DNA of 64,000 nucleotides from Macrocystis pyrifera. Lineage: Eukaryota; Sar; Phaeophyceae; Laminariales; Laminariaceae. The stretch lies in contig JASSKH010000006.1 of the NCBI GenBank assembly GCA_031763025.1, positions 5,019,691-5,083,690 of the forward strand, given 5' to 3'. The translations under genes were made by a program, and so were the position numbers. Shown here piece by piece: positions 12,331 through 28,333 of the stretch. The notes beneath the pieces were generated by a model. That model ran no database searches. It saw nothing but the letters and a program-made list of their open reading frames with translations, and was not told where the DNA came from. How positions within the stretch are numbered: the first letter of the stretch is position 1; each line of letters begins with the position of its first letter.

Positions 12331-12581
12331 GCCTCCTGCATGTGTCCGCACCCGCCCTCGTCGCTACGAAGTCCATCGCGAGCCGTCGACGTACCGCAGC
12401 TGAAGCGAACCGAAATGCAATGGGGGGAGAAACGAAACAGAAGCAGAAAAACCAAAGGAACACGACGCGAGCAGGACGGTGTGGAGTTCAGCGTTGTACT
12501 GAGTAAAACCTTGACAAAAGGCCATTGCAGCTCTCGCTACAGAACCTGCGCTTGAAGGATACAGTACGTCACACAGAACAT

Positions 12582-17023: not shown

Positions 17024-20000
17024 CTGCGGAGCGGCGTGTGCTCCTCCGCTGTTGACGGCCTCCATCTCATCTTCGCTCATCACAGGCCGTCCGAACATCG
17101 CACCGCCCACGATCTGGGAGAAGTCTAGAGCGCCGGGGCTGTGCCGGTGACGAACGGGTTCGCCATTGTTTGCCGCGATCTGCCGTACGCCAAGCCAGCG
17201 CCAACACCACAACGACAAACAACACACGCCGAGCCAAAACAACACAAACAAACAAAGAGATGAAAAAAAAAAAGAACACGGAAAACAGCGAGCAGACAGA
17301 AACGGGGATAACGGTGACGGTGCGGACGACGGCGAATCGAGACACTGCTACTGCTGCTACCAATATTACGAGGGTCCATAGTTACCACCTATGGTATGCA
17401 TAAAAACCTATATATTTACCTATTTTTACCAACAAAATTTGGTCCTTTTTACTATGGTCCCCCGTAATAGTTAATATCACTACTACTACAATTACTTCCA
17501 TCAGTACTGCTACGTAGTACCACTACAGCACTACTATTACTATTTGATACCACTACCCACTGCCACTGCTACTGCTGTCGCTACATGTGCACGCGCTTCT
17601 ACCATTAACAATACCACTCCCCACTTCCATCCACTACTACTGCTGCTAATACTGCTACTGTAGGACTACTGCTACTGAAAAAAAATGACAGAAAATGCAT
17701 GTGAAAAGCGATGCGGGGCGTGCAGGGTGTTGTACCGTACCAGCACACGTTCATCAAAGTTCACATGATGTAGGATCGGTTGTCTCCCTTCTTAACCTTT
17801 TTAGTACCGCAGTCCGGTGTTGGGGACAAATCACTTGGAGTTAGACTGGTTTGTCCCCAAATCGGGACTGCGGTACCAAAGGGGTTAAACAGGCCCACCA
17901 ACGAATGAAGAGCGAAAGGAGACAACAGAGGGGACCAGGGAGGACGGGGGGTACAACCATGGAATGCTGCAAAACTACAAATAATCATAATCATGGCGTA
18001 AACAACACAACAACAATGCACGTTTTGAGTGTCCTTGAGCGTTCTCGACATTTTGCGATTCCATCGACACTTTTAGACGTTCGGTAATATGCAGTGATCT
18101 CCCCCCCCCCCCCCCCCCCCCTCCCCCCCTCTCCATTATATATATTATATATGGGTTGGGTCGGCGTCGGTTGGCAATGACACCGTAAAACGTGCCACTC
18201 ACTACGTGAGCTAGACTGCCAGGGTACCGTTTTTTTTTTTTTTTTTTTTTTTTGGCGGTTGCCCACAGCTGGTCGTCGAGTTAGATCATCTGCGCGAGGT
18301 AACTCTTTACTCTGCACATGGGAATTGATCGTATCACGTAGTGTTCAAGGTAAGGCACCCAAAAGGAAGGTACATAGTACTCCCATTGCTGTCTCTGGAA
18401 GTGGCTACACCGGAAATTAAATTAACTCATTGAAGCTGTCATCCATATGGAAGTCCGCCTCACAAGCGGTTCTTAGTAGGATGCAGCTCACCCATTCATG
18501 CGACTCGCCGGACACCTCACGGTGCTTCGCGCTTGGTGCAAGCAATGTCTGCCTGGTCGGTGAAAACCCGACATGTTCCGTCCCGGCATTGTAGGGATGC
18601 CAGGGTCTATGGTCATACGACTACGGCCATGCATGAGATCGAGTACACCTCTCCTATCGAGTACACCCCCCCCCCCCCTCCCCCCGTATATGGTCTTAAG
18701 ACTACGACCATGCATGATAATGAGTACACCCCCCCCCCTCTCCCCCTCCCCACCCCCGCCTACCCCCGCCTACCCCCGCCCCTCCCCCACCTGCTGGCGC
18801 TGCTGGAGCTGGTGTTCGTATTGCTGCTGCTCCCGAAGGAGGGCACGCTTTCCGACGAACTTGATCAGGGGCTCGTGGCGGTTCTTTTTGGGGGCGACGA
18901 AGTCGGCGCCGGCCATGAAGGCACCGGCGAAAGCGTCGTCGAGATTCGGTTTTTTTCACCTATGACATCGCCGCCCAGCGGAATAACACAACAATACACG
19001 AAACCGGGATCGGAATTGCAATCGGCAATGGTTTCGTTGTCGGTAGTGGCAACGGTATCGGTATAGGTATCAGTATCTGTAACGGTGTTGGTATCGGTAT
19101 AGAAATTGGTATCGGTATTGATATCGCTTCTCATCGGCATAATCATTTTAGTTGCACCCGCATCCGTGTCGGTTTCTATCGGGATCGGTATGGGGCGTCG
19201 CCATCGACATCATCATCGGCATTGTCATCGTTATCGGCATTTATCTCGACCGGTATGGGCAACTTTATCGGTATCGTTATCGGTATCGATATCGGCATCG
19301 ACCTCGATCTCGATATCGGCATCGGTATCGGTATCGGCCTCGACATTACCATCGATATCGGCGTCGATACCTGTATCGACATCAGTATCGGCATCAGTGC
19401 TCGCATCGGTACCCGTATCGGCAATCGGCTTCGTTGTATATCGGTATCCGTATCGGCTTCGTTATGTATCAGTATCGGTATCGGCTTCGTTATGTATCGG
19501 TATCCGTATCGGCTTCGTTATGTATCAGTATCGGTATCGGTCCCAACCCCGGCGGAGACGCCTTTCCTATAGCATAAAAAACACAAGCAACCCACCTCAG
19601 GTGGTGGCGCGTTAGCATCTTCCTCGTCTTGCGCCGCCTGAATCTTGGCCTTCACCACAGAAGCTTCGTCCCCGTCGATCGAGCACAGGGGTTTCCCAAC
19701 CAATACCTGCCAAATACACGCACGAGGGGGGGGGGGGGGGGGGGGTACTCATTTGTTGCTTGCCTTAGTCATTTGACCATTAACCACGCATCCCTTTCGA
19801 GACGGAGCACCGTTCCTACTCCTAACAGAGACACCTCCAACAATTGGGCGCTCATTACGTTGTTTCCATATATTACATGGAAACGTTTTGGTGATATTAT
19901 CCCCTTCCTGTCTGGCCGCCTGCGGCCACCATCTATCTCCTAGGATTGCGATCGTTTTCTCGCTGCTATTCAGTGTACCAAACTCCTTCATGTCACATTC

Positions 20001-23000
20001 GCCTATTTCCCTCATCTCCTTTTCAAACACATCCCGTTGCTCCTTGTAAATTTCACATTCTACTACTATGTGATTCTACTCTCAATTTGCTTTGCCACAC
20101 GCGCACATCTCTGCATATACTTCCTCCTCCTCCCGGCTACTGGTGTACCACTTTCTTCTTTCTGGCAGGTCCAGGTCCCATACACGAAAGCGCAGTTTCA
20201 GCGTTTTCGCGAAGTCCATTGGGCCGTGAAAATGCGTTTTCATTCCTATTCCTTCCTTCAGTGCCCCGTATATCTCCAAGTGATATTCGGATTCCACCTT
20301 GTTTCTTAGAGCTAGCCTTTCCCTTCTTTCTATCATTTCTTCTACTTGTGCCTTGTACCTCCCAAACTTCCCGGCGGAAATCATCTCTTCTTGGTTTCCC
20401 CCTATATCCTTCCATACTTTGTCAACTACGCCATCCCACCTAATTCCAGCTCGCTATTTTGTTACTTTATCCCATACAGCTCTTATCAACTATGGCTGGC
20501 AACCTCTTTTTTGGCATGTTCCTTTCTTTATATTGTCATTTCAACTTCCTCGCGTCTCTACTTGTCTTGAGTGGGTGCATTCCAAGTTCTGCTCTTAATA
20601 CTGTATTACTAGTGTGTACTCTAGCATCTCAGATTTTTTTTAGCTGCTGTCATTTGTACTGTTTCCAACTGTTTCACGAGTTTCGCGTTCCCTTCCCATA
20701 CTTCTCCTGCTTATCCTAGCTTTGGTACATCAGGATACATGTCGTAATCCTAGTGTCAAGGTGCGAGTCTGTTAGGATCGCATCCATCTTGCCTACGCGT
20801 GCTTTACCCTTTCCTATTACTCTTGCTATATGTGCATCCCAAGAGCAGTATTTTGAGATCTCTACGCCAAGGTATGTATACTGGTCTACGATCGGCAATT
20901 GATATTCTCCCCACTTCCACCTGAAATTTATCGGGTTCACCTTATCTTCGTTACAAACAACTACTGCGCATTTATTGGCGCTCGTCGTCACCCTCCATTT
21001 CCTGGTGTATTCTAGCGCCTTCTCTATTTGTTTCTGCATTTCTTCGGGTGTTTCTGATATCCCCACGAAGTCATCCGCAAACATCAATCCCGACACCGTA
21101 CCTTCCCCTACCGTGACTCCCTGCCTTGCTGCCTCGACTGCTAGTATCAGGTCGTTAATATATATATATATATATCTTGAAGAGGTCAGGTGACAATGCA
21201 CATCCCTGTGCAACTCTTTGTAAAATATCAACATACTTGAACAATTTCCCCGTCCAGCATCACAACACTTCTCGCACATTCCGTCATATTTTTCATCATT
21301 CTCCACATCTTTCCTCTGATTCCTATTTCCCACAGGTTTTTCCACAATCCATCTCTCCATACTGTGTCGTAGGTTTTCTGCACCTCTAGAAATAAACAGT
21401 ATATTGTTAGTCCCGCGTCTTTCCTGCCTTGAATAATCTTACCTAAGGTGTGCATATGGTCTAAGCAACCACGGTTTGGCCTAAGCCCTGCTTGCCCTTC
21501 GCTTATTCTGTCTTCCTTCTCCATCATCGCTCCCATTCTATCGTTCAAAATCTTACAAAATGTTTTGCCTACTGCGCTTAGTGGCGTTATCCCTCTGTAG
21601 TTCCCCGGGTCAGCCTTATCTCTTTTCTTGAATAAGTTTACTACTACTCCTTCCCTCCATCTCCTAGGTGCGTACTCGTTTTGCTATATCCAGTTACACA
21701 ACATAACCATCATGGTACGCATTCCTTCTCTCCCGTACTTCAAAAATTCATTCACTATTTGGGCTGCCCCTGCTGCCTTTCTACTCTTTAAGTTTAGTTA
21801 CACACTTGTTTACTTCTTTTGTGAACTCTCTGTAACCCACCCGATTCACTGTCGTCCCTTTCTGATGTATCTACGTTCGCCTCTGCCCATGCGTTGATTT
21901 CCTTCTCGAATTCTGCGTCGAACGTTTCGTTGGCTGTGGGTACTAGTACTTCCCTTTTCCCTTTCGAACTACTAACCATTTTACCGTTCTGTGCTCTTAG
22001 AGTAGCTATTCCCGTGTCTGCCTCTCCTGCTTGTTTGCCCAGTATCTCTTTTTTATCCCTACCCACATCTGCTTAATCCCGCCCTCAAAGTCTTCATTCG
22101 ATTTATTTATTACGTCTTTCCACATTCCTTTTCTTCTTTTCTCTACCATCTCTTCTACTTTCTTTCTACCTATAGCATATTCCTCCCACCCTGTCGTAGT
22201 TTTACTGGATGTATACCTTGCGTGTGCCTTTCTCCTTACTCGTATATCCTATTTCATTTCATCATCCCACCGTTTCACTGCTCTGTTGCATACTATCAGC
22301 TTCTTCCGTTAATTTACACGCTGTGGTCTTGACAACTGCTCCCATCCTTCTATTTTTCTAGCTGGGGAGAGGCCGTTGTAATTTGAGCGGACTTGTAACG
22401 CCAGACTATTGTTATTCCTGTTGAAAAAAAAAGCCTAGTTCCGTTTCGAGGACCTCTTTCGTTGGACTCTTATCAAAAGATCCGAGCTGTTTCCCACTGG
22501 TACATGAGGAAACGCCAACATGAACAACAACAAAAAACGTGTCTCAGCCTTGCCAGACCGTTTTTTTTCTCTCAAAAATCAATCTCTGCAAACACTATAC
22601 TCGTATGAAACAAGCATAACGACAGCCGTCGACGTGAAGCCAACTGACTGAAGGATTCGGTCTTCATCGATCGCGCGCAAGAAGAGCGCCATTTATCTGT
22701 TGTGCTTGTACTGGGTATATTATGCCCAAGTACAGCACTACGGCCCCAAGCTTCGGAACAATGTTATTGTTGATGTCAGAGGCAGCAAAAAGGTGGGGAG
22801 GAGAGCCAAGAGAGATGGAAGGCGGGGGTGTACTTATGTCACTCACGGCCAGGGGGGGGGGGGGGTGTACTCATTATCATGCATGGCCGTAGTCGTATGA
22901 CCATAAACCCTCGCATCCCTATAATGCCGGGACGGAGCACGTCGGGTTTTCAGGGGGGGGATCCATGGCCGTAGTCGTATAACCATAGACCTTCGCATCC

Positions 23001-26000
23001 CTACAATGCCGGGACGGAGCACGTAGGGTTTTCACCGACCAGGCAGACATTGCTTGCACCAAGCGCGAAGCGCCGTGAGGTGTTCGGCGAGTCTCATGAA
23101 AAGAGTGAGCCGCATCCTGCTGGGAACCGTTTGAGAGGCGGACTTGTGTGTGGGTGACAGAGGGGGGGGGAGGGGTCATACAACAGCAGTGCGGGCTATA
23201 TCTACTGTACATGGTAATCTAGGTGGACCGCATGTGCGCGTGTGCACCGGGACTCTCCACGCCTGGTACGCAGATAAGAGGCTGAGCAGCAGCAAAGTGC
23301 GCACGCCCTGGTACACCGGTGATGTGTATGCCCCCCCTCGACACCACCACCCACCCTTGGAAGTTTGGTAAGCGTCAACAACATACGGCGGGCGATGGTT
23401 AGCAGAACCCAGAAAATGCATGACCCCCCCCCCTCTATGTTTATGACTCATTCTGTAATAGGATCTGGCTATTATGCTCCCCCCTTACTGAATTCGATCT
23501 CAACTTAGGACCAGGTTGTTCTATGCTAGAGGTTGCGGGAATCGTGGAGTCGACGTAGGCGTGTCTTGGATAGTCGCGCTTACTATTAATACAATACGTC
23601 GTATAGTCTAGTCTAGTCCAGGCTAGAGGTATTCCTCGGGGAACACCACCATTCTCGACCAAGCCACGATCAAGACACGGCCAACGCAACTCACACGACC
23701 TGCACGACCCACATCCCCCACACGACCCGCACGACCCACAGGACGAGTCACCACGATTCACACGGCCCCATACGAGCAACACGCCCCACATGTCTTCGTA
23801 CACAGGACCAACATGGAGATCCGCACGACCCCCGCACGACCTTACACGACCTCACACGACCCCGCACGTGTCACACGACCCCACACGACTCCACACAACC
23901 TCTCACGACTCGCGCGGCCCGCACGACGGCCCATACGATTAACCCCTCCCACCCCACACTACACTACACCACACAGCATACCACATACCATACCATACAT
24001 TCCATACCATGCCATACCATACCATACCTCACCTCACCTCACCACACCACACCACACCACACCACACCACACCACACCCACAACCCCCCCCCCCCCCCCC
24101 CCCCCCCGCTTGGCTCCCTCTCCCTCTCCCGAAAAACATCGCGCTTGTACTCACCACATCGTCCACGGCAGCGAAGAGCTTGACCACGACTCCCACGTGC
24201 GTAGAGCGGACCTCGACGCTGACCTTGTCCGTCTCCACGACGGCAATCACCTCGTCTTCCTTAACCTCGTCCCCGACCGACTTGCACCACTGCACTACGG
24301 TGCCCTCAGAGATAGAGTCGCCCAGACTTGGGGGCAGGAGTTGGATGGTGTATGTGGATTTTTACAGCGGGGGGAGGAGGCGAGAGGGGGTACAGGGGAG
24401 AGGAAAGGTAAGGGGGGGGATGGGGGGTTGAAGTGATGAATTGATACTCTGTGAACGGAGTTGCATAGGAAAGGAGGGGAATAGAATGGAGGGGGAGAGA
24501 GGGGGGGGAGAGGTACGCATGGACATGTGGGAGCCCGAGGGCAGAGGGGGGTGTGATGTATGATCAGCAATATCATTAGGGTCGGCGGGGCCGGGAGGAG
24601 GGGAGGGGAGGGTGGAGGGTAAGAGGGAAATCTCAGGGGGGGGGGGGGGGGGGGGGGGGGGGGGAGATACATCTATAGGGGGGAGGGACGAGAGTTCGGA
24701 CGGGCGATTCATCCCGATCGAATAAAGCGACATTAAACGCCAGGCAGAGGGGATGGGGGGGGGGGGGGGGGGGAGGGTCAAGATCGGGACATCCCCAATG
24801 GACCACGTAACAGAAAAAATAATCCCAAGGAGAAAGAATCAAACCAGCAACCAATCCCACCGCCACCAAACAACCCACATCTCGCAAAGATCACGATCTA
24901 TCTGTCTGCAGTAGATCATCTACATCCGTTGTATTGATATGTCGTGAAGGATCTGTATAGTACAGATCCAACCCAGGAAACAAGTCCTAGATCATAAAGA
25001 TCATACAGATCATACAGATCATACATATCATACAGATCATACAGATCATACAGATCATACAGATCATACAGATCATACAGTTCAGGAATCGACGATCTAT
25101 CCGAGATGGTAAAAAAATTCCACCACACAACGGCCTCAACATCTTCACGAGCACCATGACAGCAGTTGGCTCCGACTGAGAGAATCTTCGGCACCCCTCG
25201 TCAGCTACGCGGCCGAGCTTGAAAGCACGCAGGGGCAAACAGTCATGATAACATAGTTCAGGAGGGAAGGGGGAAGAGGAGGAGAGAAGGGGAGAGGGAG
25301 GAGGGGGGGCGACGAAAACAGAGAAAGGGGGCGGCTGCCCTCCATTTTTTAACCCGTAAACCTCACCGCTCTCTCCCTCCCCCCTCTATCCTCTCCTCCC
25401 TCTCTCTCCCTCCCTCCCTCCCTCCCTCCCTCCCTCTGCCCTTTTATGGCCTTCGCCATCACCAAAATCTCACCCTGGAAGCTCCATGACGTGCTCGTCC
25501 CGGCGCGGAGAAGAAGCCCGGAAACTTCCAAGTCTCCGATCCGTCCGGGGAACACCGGTCGCTGGCGATGGAAACTCACCCACTCCAGCCACCCCGCGTG
25601 CCGCAGCGATGGTGCTGCTCGACGCCGACCGAGACTGCTGTGGAAAGGCGAGAAACAGAAACTCGGTGCTGTTTTTTTCGGCGTGCGTGCGGTGGTTGCG
25701 GCCACGCTTGCGCGCGGCGGGCACACACAAGAGCACAGAGATGAAGCGCAAACTGAAACAAACGCATACTGACAACAAATCCAGCCTGCTGCCTTTCATT
25801 GTTTTCGTTCGCGCTCAACTGTATGCACGTGCAAGGTGTGCCTATTACTACCTATACTGACTGGACAGAAAAATTGAAGAAGGGACTACAGCTCTGGACG
25901 GATCTACGAGGAGCGTTCAGACACGGTTCAAAATTTCTGCGCATAGCAATACGAGGTAGTCTACAACAGCACTCTCTCTTTCGTATTACATATGATTTTG

Positions 26001-27705
26001 GTACTGCTGTCGTGATGTCGCTGTTTTGGGCCCAAGTACCACCCAGTTCGGAAATATCGAGATTTTTTGTACATGTATCCGAACTTGCAAACGCACGCTA
26101 TCTTTCCGAACAGAGTGGTACCTCGTGTCGGGTAATCGGGTGTTTTTCGAATGTGCTAAGGCTGTTTCTTATGCGGTTCGATTTTTGAGCTTCAGGTTTT
26201 GACCCGATCGCATTTTCAGATGTGAACTTGGCAAATCGAAACAGTCTTTCCTATGCGGAAAAATCAGATTTATTGTGCTTGCAGAGATTCGAGCAAACGC
26301 CGAGACCAACTGCTGTTGTGGTCTGGCGCCGCGAAGAGACGCGCTGAGGCGCTGCACTGCGCGTAGGACGCAAGCGTCCGAGCCCACGCTGACTGCCTCT
26401 GTCTGTTCTGGCGTGTTCTGGCGGCGAAGAGACGTGCCGAGTGCGCTTAAGTCAGTCAACCTGTCTCGGTATATGAATTGTGACACAATGCGACTGCTGC
26501 CGTAGTCTACCAGCACGTATCCACGGAGAGGTGCGCGCCGAGTGCGCTTCTCTTGGTATCTAGGCCCGAGCCCGCGCCAGCAGACTGTATTCTGGCCACG
26601 GAGAGAGACGCGCCGCCTGCCGTCTGCGCGTCGGGCACGATGCAACGTCGCTATCCAGCTGTGTCACCCTTCAACCCACCGATGATTCTGCTGCTGCTGG
26701 TTGTCGTGGATAATATCTTGAATTTAGAGACCATGCCATTATTCAATTTGAAAAAATATAATGGCCCAGGTCGTCGGATTTTGGGCCAAAATCTGACGAC
26801 GCGGCCATCGGATTCTCTAATCGAAAAAAAAAAAAACTGTCAGATTTTGCATATTCGGACTGCATCATAATAAGCGTACGTATGCTTTCATTTTTGGGAT
26901 CGAAAAATAGAAATCCGAAGCTCGAAATCGAACCGCATAGGAAACAGTCTAGAACTACTACTGCTGTATGGGTGAGCACTACCGTTAATAGGGCTGGGCC
27001 CTCGTCCAGTGCGTGTGTTGTCTTCACATTAAACAGCTACCTGGTATTTCTACCCGACGACACCAGTATACCCAGTCAGTGTCCGTCCTGATTCCTTATC
27101 CTACGTAGCGAGAGACTACAGTTATACGGTCACAGGCTGTGAGAGACGGGAAAAAAAACAATATGTCCCACGATACGCCTCATAACATAGCGGATACCTA
27201 CTGTACCTACCACGAGGCGCGGCGCCGAGATAGGGCGCGCGAAACAGAAGAGAGAGGGGATAGAGGGGGGGGGCACTGGGGGCACTGCTGTGAGTGCGAT
27301 GGACGAAGCCGCCTCAACCGTGATTCATGTCTTGGGACTCTGCGGGTCCCCCATGTACCGCCATGCACTTCGTCCGCTATTTTCTCGCCTTTCCTCAGTC
27401 AACCTCCCGCCCCCAGTTGCCTTGAAACGTGGCCCGAAATCGACGTACAGCAGTGCCAAAGCGCGTGTAAACGTGCTTCCGGCAGGGCACCTCCAGCGGG
27501 GCCTTCCGGGGGCGTCGGCGGCGGGCCCTTATCACCAGCCGGAGGGTCGCAGCCTCGCTATTACCCGTACGAGTACACGCGATAAGTGCAGCCGTCATGA
27601 ATGATACCTCCACACCTACACTCACTCCACACCACGCCGCACGTGTACAAAAGCTCGAACGACAAGACTCCTGTCGGGCCTAGATGGGTGATCAACCCCG
27701 TTCGG

Positions 27706-27778
<73 letters not shown>

Positions 27779-28333
27779 ACGGCTTACACGCGGCCATCAT
27801 ACACCCGAAGGTCCCTGATACCCTACAAACAGGTTCGTAGCTGCTTCCAGTATCGGTATTTCGTAAATGGTGTAGTAAATGGTATATACAGCAGCACATA
27901 CAGCATAGAGCAGTGCCGAGTGACCGATAAGCGATAATACAACGATTGAAGAAAATGGGATGGAACTTTTCCGGTTCAGTTTTGCAGCTGATGACAAGAA
28001 CGTCCGGACGGCGAGATACTGTTGTGCATGTCTGCTCTCGCGGCTTCCTCCACCACGATCGGTTCTCCCAGGCCTGTAGACGACTATAGCTCGACCGTAA
28101 TCGTAAGCACACCACCACAACGCAATATATCGGGTATTGTAGCAGGAACATCAGGCCGGACCAGAGTTAAGTCGTACGAGTGCTCGTCGTCAAGTAAGGA
28201 GAGCACTTAATCGTACCTGAGCAGCAACAATCGTGCAGCTTCCTCGGCCGAAGTTTCTCCCAAGCCCAGCGGAAGAGAACGCCCTACGCGCAGTCGCAGC
28301 CATCACCGCCGGCTTCCGACACACCGCTGCCAT
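17024..28333 (-). CDS. Mitochondrial lipoyl-domain protein fused to KGD4/YMR31 (MRPS36-like) segment
   Basis: Six exons on the minus strand: 28333-28217, 25637-25474, 24326-24155, 19706-19596, 18959-18791 and 17179-17024. Exon 1 starts MAAVCRKPAVMAATARRAFS, an arginine- and alanine-rich presequence. Exon 2 ends EHVMELPG and splices to LGDSISEGTVVQW. Exons 2-4 make one complete lipoyl domain (about residues 88-165); the lipoyl lysine is in ETDKVSVEV (about residue 128). An acidic linker ending APPPE follows. Exon 5 carries NRHEPLIKFVGKRALL, and exon 6 carries GRPVMSEDEMEAVNSGGA. These are the two conserved blocks of KGD4/YMR31, the eukaryotic adaptor that tethers E3 to the 2-oxoglutarate dehydrogenase core. 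Junction phases agree except at exon 5: the AG at 18960 leaves an in-frame TGA unless the A7 run has one A fewer. An AG at AAAAAG before AACCGC keeps frame but drops about 25 residues. The C-terminus is unresolved (GTACTA donor or read-through). The alternative is two genes, with KGD4 starting at the ATG at 18916. Confidence 0.68.
17366..17467. mobile_element. 105-bp MITE family, copy 3
   Basis: It starts TTACGAGGGTCC and ends GGTCCCCCGTAA, flanked by TA. It lies just upstream (in transcript sense) of the last exon of the lipoyl-KGD4 gene, in its intron 5. Confidence 0.7.
17792..17888. mobile_element. TTAA-flanked fold-back MITE (piggyBac-like)
   Basis: TTAA is present at both ends (17792-17795 and 17885-17888). 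Inverted arms of about 35 bases contain GTACCGCAGTCC on the left and GGACTGCGGTAC on the right, with GGGGACAAA / TTTGTCCCC further in. A TTAA target with arms beginning CC fits piggyBac-type non-autonomous elements. It is intronic in the lipoyl-KGD4 gene. Confidence 0.6.
18130..18315 (-). repeat. Type Q dispersed repeat
   Basis: A minus-strand copy of the 5460-5665 repeat. Its end (ATATATTATATATGG) meets a C run at about 18100-18121, which is the same G-run association read on the other strand. Confidence 0.65.
18425..18740 (-). repeat. Type P dispersed repeat, minus, with extra partial copy
   Basis: It has GGTTCTTAGTAGGATGCAGC, then CGGTGAAAACCCGACATG, then GGCCATGCATGAGATCGAG, followed by a C run at 18666-18677. 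A 50-bp repeat of the terminal part alone follows, with another C run. It is intronic in the lipoyl-KGD4 gene. Confidence 0.7.
19030..19560. repeat. Imperfect GGTATC hexanucleotide array
   Basis: About 500 bp of variants of GGTATC / GGCATC / GGTATA, with higher-order repeats near the right end (TCGGCTTCGTTATGTATC several times). It fills most of intron 4 of the lipoyl-KGD4 gene. Long serine/isoleucine or arginine/tyrosine open frames through it are artefacts. Confidence 0.85.
19745..19815 (+). repeat. Type R repeat after a G run
   Basis: A G run (about 19729-19744) leads into TACTCATTTGTTGCTTGCC, the ATTTGACCATT module, then CCCTTTCGAGACGGAGCAC. It lies just outside the LINE 3' end. Confidence 0.6.
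19850..22390 (-). mobile_element. Degenerate LINE (non-LTR retrotransposon) with reverse transcriptase
   Basis: On the minus strand, in several frames, the conceptual ORF reads as a non-LTR reverse transcriptase. It starts with an upstream region (21800-22390) with LRAQNGKMVSSSKGKREVLV and continues with PGNYRGITPLSAVGK (about 21560-21610) and ISEGQAGLRPNRGCLDH (about 21480-21520). The catalytic FADD lies near 21070-21085, DQYTYLGVEIS near 20870, and a C-terminal cysteine-rich stretch (MCACGKAN) near 20090. Frame breaks and an AT microsatellite (about 21156-21176) inside the RT make it inactive. It lies in intron 3 of the lipoyl-KGD4 gene in the same orientation and accounts for over half of that intron. 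Confidence 0.85.
22868..23150 (+). repeat. Type P dispersed repeat with tandem partial copy
   Basis: A G run at 22852-22865 is followed by TGTACTCATTATCATGCATGG. The first ~85 bp are repeated after another G run, and the second copy is complete, ending AACCGTTTGAGAGGCGGAC. Confidence 0.7.
23690..24107. repeat. ACGACC/ACACC-type arrays ending in a C run
   Basis: CACACGACC-like units (23690-23945) pass into CACACCACACC and CATACCATACC units (23950-24075) and then a run of about 25 C (24083-24107). It lies just downstream of the lipoyl exon donor, inside intron 3. Proline/histidine/threonine open frames here are artefacts. Confidence 0.85.
24630..24775. repeat. Two long G runs in intron 2
   Basis: G runs of roughly 25 and 17 bases (about 24639-24664 and 24758-24774) lie within a generally G-rich region (24360-24780). 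On the sense strand this forms the C-rich, pyrimidine-rich tract upstream of the lipoyl exon. Confidence 0.85.
24896..25085. repeat. CAGATCATA satellite module
   Basis: A short GATCATCTACA stretch, then a core with CAGATCCAACCCAGGAAACA and GTCCTAGATCATA, then a nine-base array (CAGATCATA) of about eleven units. It has the same layout as at 12.6 and 33.6 kb and lies in intron 2 of the lipoyl-KGD4 gene. Confidence 0.75.
26765..26805. repeat. Near-perfect palindrome
   Basis: GTCGTCGGATTTTGG is followed almost directly by CCAAAATCTGACGAC, a hairpin with 15-base arms and one mismatch. It is in intron 1 of the lipoyl-KGD4 gene. The function is unknown. Confidence 0.6.
27060..27150 (+). repeat. Dispersed repeat shared with 32995-33085 and 61785-61905
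   Basis: The shared order is CAGTGTCCGTCCTG, TTCCTTATCC, ACGTAG-GAGA, then GGTCACAG and CTGTGAGAGAC. The 61.8-kb copy is on the minus strand. It is a ~90-bp non-coding repeat family. Confidence 0.55.
27709..27777. repeat. (CTG)23 trinucleotide array
   Basis: Twenty-three uninterrupted CTG units. In the sense orientation of the lipoyl-KGD4 gene it is (CAG)23, located in intron 1, so it is not translated in the proposed gene model. Confidence 0.95.

What the first reader, a model, noticed from the sequence alone, without database searches (positions are those of the whole stretch)
17024..28333. A lipoyl domain fused to the KGD4/MRPS36 E3-recruiting adaptor, without an E2 catalytic domain
Seen: six minus-strand exons give presequence, one complete lipoyl domain (ETDKVSVEV), then both conserved KGD4/YMR31 blocks (EPLIKFVGKR and EMEAVNSGGA). 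No chloramphenicol-acetyltransferase-type E2 catalytic domain occurs between or after them in the window. Known: KGD4/MRPS36 tethers E3 to the 2-oxoglutarate dehydrogenase core, and in pyruvate dehydrogenase E3BP (PDHX) combines a lipoyl arm with an E3-binding domain. Inference: this could be a 2-oxoglutarate dehydrogenase E3BP analogue carrying its own swinging lipoyl arm. I do not know of this architecture being described, but I could not search.
Basis: partly seen in the sequence, partly recalled or inferred. Interest (0 to 1): 0.92.

Follow-up and report, generated by a model that had tools for sequence, protein, structure and literature searches.

The report
Lipoyl arm fused to KGD4 adaptor
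Brown algae and relatives such as water moulds encode a mitochondrial-type protein that joins a lipoic-acid-carrying arm to the small clip (KGD4) thought to hold the third enzyme onto the 2-oxoglutarate dehydrogenase complex, a combination I did not find described in the papers I could search.

Summary
As assembled, the frame breaks by one base at the start of exon 5 (an A7 run), so the exons do not form one open frame. A 969-bp contig of a close relative, a partial Laminaria protein and an Ectocarpus model read through this junction in frame; a homopolymer error is the likely cause. A motif screen finds the architecture in 66 of 285 retrieved proteins (control 0 of 77), including brown algae, Tribonema, Chrysoparadoxa and oomycetes, with the lipoyl lysine in 66 of 66. 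The genome has a separate DLST-like gene without a detected E3-binding domain; no second KGD4 was detected (one weak hit, E 0.29). Best reading: an E3-recruiting subunit of 2-oxoglutarate dehydrogenase with its own swinging arm, analogous to E3BP of pyruvate dehydrogenase. Lipoylation, complex membership and catalytic use are inferred.

The parts
28217..28333 (-). Exon 1: start codon and mitochondrial-type presequence MAAVCRKPAVMAATARRAFSSAG...
   Evidence: Open from ATG, donor GTACGA, phase 0; presequence character judged by eye (inference), no targeting predictor was run
25474..25634 (-). Exon 2: rest of the leader and first strand of the lipoyl domain (HVMELPG). Acceptor 25634, or 25637 three bases upstream
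   Evidence: All six candidates that passed my scan for an exon of the right phase ending in a first lipoyl strand share this donor. Its end SFRxSxPRRxEHVMELPGLGDSI aligns with Ectocarpus P0002
24155..24326 (-). Exon 3: body of the lipoyl domain with the acceptor lysine in ETDKVSVEV
   Evidence: PF00364 62.6 bits on this frame; acceptor CCCAAG, donor GTGAGT
19596..19706 (-). Exon 4: end of the lipoyl domain (VLVGKPLCSIDGDE) and linker ...DANAPPPE
   Evidence: Acceptor TTGGCAG, donor GTGGGT; equivalent residues contiguous with the lipoyl body in P0001 and P0002
18791..18959 (-). Exon 5: KGD4 block 1 (KKPNLDDAFAGAFMAGADFVAPKKNRHEPLIKFVGKR). One-base frame break in the A7 run just after the exon start
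   Evidence: TGA at 18958-18956 in the KGD4 frame; the genome search notes one TGA; relatives are in frame
17024..17179 (-). Exon 6: KGD4 block 2 (ALDFSQIVGGAMFGRPVMSEDEMEAVNSGGAHAAPQ)
   Evidence: PF10937 match of the KGD4 half lies here; splice sites GGCAG and GTACTA
12364..12399 (-).
   Evidence: acceptor TTCAG; same C-terminus in P0001 (LRYVDGSRWSS) and P0002 (LRYIDGSRWAS)

Best explanation
[quoted passage not shown] The KGD4 part should bind E3 through its first block (PLIKFxGKR) and the E2o core through its C-terminal block (EMEAVNSGGA here), replacing the E3-binding domain that eukaryotic E2o lacks. The lipoyl domain, lipoylated on the lysine of ETDKVSVEV, hangs next to the E3-binding block and acts as an extra swinging arm that E1o can reductively succinylate and E3 can reoxidise. 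It thus works like pyruvate dehydrogenase E3BP, reached by a different route. Shown here: gene structure, both domains, conservation, no detected E2 catalytic domain or PSBD, a separate DLST-like gene. Inferred: mitochondrial import, lipoylation, OGDHC membership, E3 and E2o binding, catalytic use of the arm.
For: Both halves lie in one open frame in P0001 (218 aa, from a 969-bp contig, 93% identity; the matching exons 3-7 span about 12 kb in the window), P0002 Ectocarpus (300 aa), P0003 (320 aa) and P0008 Tribonema (286 aa). A motif screen (lipoyl motif, then KGD4 block 1, then block 2 near the end, under 340 aa) picks 66 of 285 held proteins; without the length limit it picks 0 of 77 control proteins (340 aa or longer, or with an E2 catalytic signature). 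The lipoyl lysine is present in 66 of 66 and invariant in alignments A1 (20 rows) and A4 (35 rows), rows chosen by me. 15 KGD4 halves match 8 fungal KGD4/YMR31-type proteins profile to profile, probability 99.2%; a search with the halves lists fungal proteins named ribosomal protein ymr-31 or S36. PF10937 is matched by 16 of 35 A4 members, PF00364 by 35 of 35. Own genome: lipoyl and E2 catalytic exons on C207 without a PSBD match; all matches of this protein with E under 0.01 are this gene or the C207 lipoyl exon, which is 63% identical over 43 residues. AlphaFold of P0002 gives the lipoyl domain at pLDDT 91-96. In a cross-link-supported model, MRPS36 binds E2o by its C-terminal and E3 by its N-terminal residues (PMC9974300).
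Against: The window's own exon 5 is one base out of frame as assembled. No protein-level or named-species transcript data were available. The KGD4 Pfam score of the whole protein is below cut-off, and 19 of 35 A4 members, Ectocarpus P0002 among them, have no PF10937 hit at E <= 0.001. PDB sequence searches with the KGD4 half found nothing. The fusion is not universal: Aureoumbra P0263 (108 aa, transcriptome) and the unnamed P0203 and P0222 look like KGD4 alone. The best Foldseek matches of the lipoyl domain are pyruvate dehydrogenase E2 (ranks 1-3); the 2-oxoglutarate dehydrogenase E2 chains come at ranks 4 and 11. A reported transfection test found no increase in OGDHC activity on adding MRPS36 (cited in PMC8146983).
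Confidence: 0.72

Rival explanations
1. The fusion is real and part of OGDHC, but the lipoyl domain is mainly structural or regulatory: it occupies lipoyl-binding surfaces on E3 or E2o, or is a lipoyl reserve, and is not needed for turnover.
For: PMC10203282 suggests that unloaded lipoyl domains may act as anchors (passage) and finds 24 E2o subunits with peripheral subunits sub-stoichiometric, so added arms would be few. From recall only, the lipoyl domain of yeast E3BP is dispensable for activity.
Against: The acceptor lysine and several lipoyl-domain glycines are invariant in the aligned rows, which suggests that lipoylation is selected for.
Confidence: 0.2
2. Two adjacent genes: a lipoyl protein in exons 1-4, and a stand-alone KGD4 starting at ATG 18916.
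For: The assembled sequence has a stop in the KGD4 frame at 18958-18956. Automated models of Ascophyllum (P0171, 94 aa) and Hapterophycus (P0176, 99 aa) start at or just before this methionine.
Against: 11 of 13 held records with the region carry the segment [LI][ED]DAxxGAF upstream of the methionine as protein; the two without it are P0171 and P0176 themselves. P0001-P0005 carry both halves in one frame, as do oomycete relatives. Fragment P0031 shares MAGADFVPPKKSSHEPLIKF with P0171 and does carry the upstream segment.
Confidence: 0.03
3. The architecture is real in relatives, but in this genome the gene is a recent pseudogene because the A7 frameshift is genuine.
For: The only detected copy has an extra base in exon 5.
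Against: The other six exons are open with intact splice sites. Homopolymer runs are a common place for assembly errors (general knowledge). It is the genome's only detected KGD4.
Confidence: 0.06
4. It serves another lipoyl-dependent complex (pyruvate, branched-chain or 2-oxoadipate dehydrogenase) rather than OGDHC.
For: E3 is shared by these complexes (PMC9974300). The lipoyl fold matches pyruvate, branched-chain and 2-oxoglutarate E2 lipoyl domains, pyruvate ones best.
Against: In the papers seen, the role shown for KGD4 is in OGDHC. The lipoyl sequence is closest to the DLST-like gene within this genome, and in the tree it intermixes with DLST lipoyl domains, apart from PSBD-bearing E2s (only 3 such rows, one on a very long branch).
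Confidence: 0.05

Closest known systems
KGD4 / MRPS36 (E3BPo, E4 of OGDHC; PF10937)
   Same: Both conserved blocks in the same order; profile-profile probability 99.2% to fungal KGD4-type proteins
   Different: The four fungal ones read are 95-137 aa and have no lipoyl domain. The Chaetomium one is annotated as fused to a holocytochrome c synthase (PMC10203282 passage), a different partner
E3BP / PDHX (protein X) of the pyruvate dehydrogenase complex
   Same: Lipoyl arm plus E3-recruiting module on a non-catalytic subunit; proposed to tether E3 to the E2 core
   Different: No PSBD (PF02817) and no E2 core domain (PF00198) here; KGD4 would take both roles. Analogy, not homology, outside the lipoyl domain
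DLST (E2o)
   Same: E2o-like lipoyl domain (ETDKVS), mitochondrial-type leader
   Different: No succinyltransferase domain; the genome's separate DLST-like gene is on contig C207
Lipoyl-bearing E3 such as Neisseria P64K (architecture recalled; its lipoyl domain 1gjx is rank 36)
   Same: A lipoyl arm placed next to E3
   Different: There the arm is fused to E3 itself, here to its adaptor

Membership tests
KGD4/MRPS36 | N-terminal block P-[LS]-I-[KR]-F-x-G-K-R | tested here: met
   EPLIKFVGKR in exon 5; its I and F are invariant in A1, A3 and A4, rows chosen by me
KGD4/MRPS36 | C-terminal block ending E-[MI]-[ED]-x-[IV]-x-S-G-G-A | tested here: met
   EMEAVNSGGA in exon 6; oomycete members vary it (for example EVESINSGLA)
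KGD4/MRPS36 | Match to the Pfam profile PF10937 above its cut-off | tested here: inconclusive
   KGD4 half 24.4 bits (cut-off 22), but 19.9 in the full-length protein; 16 of 35 relatives at E <= 0.001
KGD4/MRPS36 | Profile similarity to established fungal members | tested here: met
   hhalign probability 99.2%, 15 halves against 8 fungal proteins
KGD4/MRPS36 | Binds E3 and the E2o core | not testable with these tools
   Needs biochemistry
Lipoyl domain (PF00364) | Barrel-sandwich fold with the acceptor lysine at a beta turn | tested here: met
   64.1 bits; in the model of relative P0002, lysine 131 lies between strands 123-128 and 133-137, pLDDT about 93-95; PDB lipoyl matches
Lipoyl domain (PF00364) | Carries lipoate | not testable with these tools
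   Only conservation of the lysine is shown
PDC E3BP/PDHX | Peripheral subunit-binding domain PF02817 | tested here: not met
   No PF02817 in the spliced protein, exons 1-6, at E <= 1; no match on contig C220
PDC E3BP/PDHX | E2-like core domain PF00198 | tested here: not met
DLST (E2o) | Catalytic 2-oxoacid_dh domain | tested here: not met
   No PF00198 match on C220 or in the spliced protein

The most novel reading that the evidence does not exclude
Stramenopile OGDHC may have a fourth-subunit design of its own: the E3-recruiting subunit carries a working, dedicated lipoyl arm at the E3 site, so electrons and possibly succinyl groups are passed by an arm that does not belong to the E2 core. 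If so, OGDHC evolved an E3BP with a swinging arm independently of pyruvate dehydrogenase, using an unrelated E3-binding peptide.
Probability: 0.5. Interest if true: 0.72.

Novelty: new variant of a known kind. Interest (0 to 1): 0.62.

Why it matters
How E3 is attached to OGDHC in eukaryotes was worked out only recently (KGD4/MRPS36). A conserved natural fusion of KGD4 with a lipoyl domain is independent evolutionary evidence that KGD4 works at the lipoyl cycle and not in the ribosome, where it was first placed. It also gives a testable system for why E3-binding subunits carry arms at all, a question raised by E3BP. It would correct annotation too: several of these proteins are filed as DLST, lipoamide acyltransferase or lipoyl-binding domain-containing protein.

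Tried and rejected
Considered and rejected: independent KGD4 start at 18916 (my first count, 10 of 11, used a pattern that itself asked for AGAF upstream, so I recounted with the methionine segment alone, 11 of 13). A splice choice that would keep the assembled A7 frame open: none by inspection, since the stop lies directly upstream in the KGD4 frame and no AG follows before the methionine. A second KGD4 in the genome: one weak hit, C211, E 0.29, 30% identity over block 2 without the SGGA end; it could be a decayed copy or chance, and a diverged KGD4 in short exons could be missed. The genome search with PF10937 found nothing even for this gene and its controls were silent, so it is not evidence of absence. 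Lipoyl trees: my first labels put several truncated fusions in an 'other' group; after relabelling by eye, 28 fused against 68 DLST rows, one origin is neither shown nor rejected (p-AU 0.061; the three PSBD rows and P0058 were dropped, near-copies thinned). PDB sequence searches with the KGD4 half gave nothing. The KGD4 part of the AlphaFold model is low-confidence and was not interpreted. Literature: seven searches of open-licence PMC papers. I saw the listings; sections 7 and 8 and passages of PMC9974300; passages of PMC10203282, PMC8146983, PMC7050145, PMC2705460, PMC13311838 and PMC9004409. None of what I saw describes a lipoyl-KGD4 fusion. Supplements, preprints and most subscription papers were not searched. 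The original Kgd4 paper (PMC4214781) is not held.
Full report
WHAT IS IN THE WINDOW. The window lies at contig C220:5019691-5083690 of a 537-Mb genome in 223 contigs. The best named matches are brown algae, so I take the organism for a brown alga; that it is a kelp is only my guess. On the minus strand, seven exons with introns bordered by GT and AG form the gene: 28333-28217, 25634-25474 (acceptor may be 25637), 24326-24155, 19706-19596, 18959-18791, 17179-17024 and 12399-12364. Exon 2 was found by scanning for an exon of the right phase and ending; all six candidates share one donor, and its end aligns with Ectocarpus P0002.

FRAME BREAK. As assembled, exon 5 starts GTG followed by seven A. 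In the KGD4 frame this gives TGA at 18958-18956, and the strict joined translation leaves the KGD4 frame there. Relatives read this junction in frame: P0001 PPPEVKKPNLDD, Laminaria digitata P0169 PPPEVKKLNLDD, Ectocarpus P0002 PPPKVKKPSLED. Three fragments from other contigs (P0012, P0172, P0031) are open through the same place. A homopolymer error in the assembly is the simplest reading; a genuine frameshift in this individual is not excluded.

IT IS ONE PROTEIN IN RELATIVES. P0001, from a contig of only 969 bp, carries lipoyl domain, linker, both KGD4 blocks and the end in one frame, 93% identical to the window over the aligned part. The same exons (3-7) span about 12 kb in the window, so that contig is most likely spliced cDNA; an intronless copy is not excluded (inference). 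Full-length models exist in Ectocarpus (300 aa), P0003 (320 aa) and Tribonema (286 aa). Of 13 held records that contain the region around the methionine at 18916, 11 carry the conserved segment upstream of it as protein; the other two are the automated models P0171 (Ascophyllum) and P0176 (Hapterophycus), which begin at or just before it. I take those as truncated, but they are the evidence for the rival.

HOW WIDE IT IS. A motif screen for lipoyl motif, KGD4 block 1 and block 2 in proteins under 340 aa picks 66 of the 285 proteins held after three searches; the same screen without the length limit picks 0 of 77 control proteins that are 340 aa or longer or have an E2 catalytic signature. It misses some evident members, such as P0149 and P0167. 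Named holders include Ectocarpus, Scytosiphon, Pylaiella, Tribonema, Chrysoparadoxa, Phytophthora, Pythium, Lagenidium, Plasmopara, Peronospora and Aphanomyces. Many others come from unnamed metagenomes. One search reported 2920 matches and one search reported 273; each listed the best 120, so the true spread is not measured. Aureoumbra lagunensis P0263 (108 aa) and the unnamed P0203 and P0222 look like KGD4 without a lipoyl domain, so the fusion is not universal.

BOTH HALVES ARE WHAT THEY LOOK LIKE. Lipoyl domain: PF00364 at 64.1 bits, in 35 of 35 members of A4; the lysine is invariant in A1 (20 rows) and A4 (35 rows), rows chosen by me, and present in 66 of 66 screened proteins. The model of Ectocarpus P0002 has the domain at pLDDT 91-96 with the lysine between two strands. 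Its leading PDB matches are mostly lipoyl and biotinyl domains; pyruvate dehydrogenase E2 ranks first, 2-oxoglutarate dehydrogenase E2 chains rank 4 and 11. KGD4: PF10937 at 24.4 bits for the half alone, 19.9 (below cut-off) in the whole protein; 16 of 35 A4 members hit it, Ectocarpus P0002 does not; hhalign of 15 KGD4 halves against 8 fungal KGD4-type proteins gives 99.2% probability.

THE REST OF THE COMPLEX IN THIS GENOME. PF00198 has 12 listed matches, none on C220; they lie on C193, C219, C207, C214 and C199. PF02817 matches C193, C219, C214 (twice) and C199, but not C207. C207 has a lipoyl exon (PSMGDSISEGTIVNW...ETDKVS) and E2 catalytic exons, so it is the DLST candidate; a motif scan of its minus strand found no second lipoyl domain within 870-896 kb. 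The window's lipoyl domain is most like this one among other loci (63% over 43 residues), and no other KGD4 match has E under 0.01; one, C211, has E 0.29. Six DLST-type proteins of relatives and metagenomes that I scanned (P0037, P0067, P0069, P0070, P0088, P0080) have PF00198 and PF00364 and no PF02817 at E <= 0.1. This fits the published statement that eukaryotic E2o lacks the PSBD and that MRPS36 replaces it (PMC9974300 sections 7 and 8).

MECHANISM. In the model of PMC9974300 the N-terminal part of MRPS36 touches the E3 dimer and the C-terminal part the E2o trimer. PMC10203282 names the fungal protein E3BPo for the same reason (passage). In the fusion the lipoyl domain sits N-terminal to the E3-binding block through a linker, so it would hang beside E3 and could visit E1o, E2o and E3. 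That makes the protein work like E3BP of pyruvate dehydrogenase while sharing with it only the lipoyl domain. Predicted fold, conservation and gene content come from the calls cited; import, lipoylation, binding and turnover are inferred.

ORIGIN. The lipoyl domains of the fusions mix with DLST lipoyl domains, and both are separated from the few PSBD-bearing E2 lipoyl domains (only 3 such rows). A single origin of the fused lipoyl domains is neither shown nor rejected (p-AU 0.061). With 74 columns this cannot be resolved.

VERDICT. A real, conserved, apparently undescribed domain architecture in a central enzyme complex: a new variant of a known kind (an OGDHC E3-binding subunit). The claim of non-description rests only.

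Noticed in passing
window 28884 to about 42700, + strand: A succinate dehydrogenase iron-sulphur subunit (SDHB by recalled motifs: [66 protein letters not shown]) is transcribed divergently, start codons about 550 bp apart; two TCA-cycle genes may share a promoter.
   Followed up: partly
window 20716-21683, - strand: Open frames that look by eye like a reverse transcriptase of a LINE-type element, inside the intron between exons 3 and 4.
   Followed up: no
window about 19000-19550: A degenerate repeat of a CCGATA-type unit fills most of the intron between exons 4 and 5.
   Followed up: no
P0067, P0069, P0070, P0088 and others: DLST-type proteins of oomycetes, Pinguiococcus and metagenomes carry two lipoyl domains in tandem; 59 of 183 proteins matched by my lipoyl model have two matched stretches (one, P0034, is a split single domain).
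   Followed up: partly
P0061 (235 aa, metagenome): Lipoyl domain followed by a divergent KGD4-like tail (GISFPPRR ... EMELINSGGAF) without a PF10937 hit; the fusion may extend beyond the groups named here.
   Followed up: no
G000:C211:1162775-1162936 (L032): Weak resemblance to KGD4 block 2 (LSPGCFHIAKIIAGSMYGEPHLSNQ, E 0.29) without the SGGA end; a decayed copy or chance.
   Followed up: partly
G000:C193:9456572-9457885: An E2 with lipoyl, PSBD and catalytic domain matches in one open frame of 491 aa, whereas the other E2 genes of this genome match exon by exon.
   Followed up: no
P0263: Aureoumbra lagunensis transcriptome protein that looks like a stand-alone KGD4 with its own leader (PF10937 22.1 bits, cut-off 22).
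   Followed up: partly
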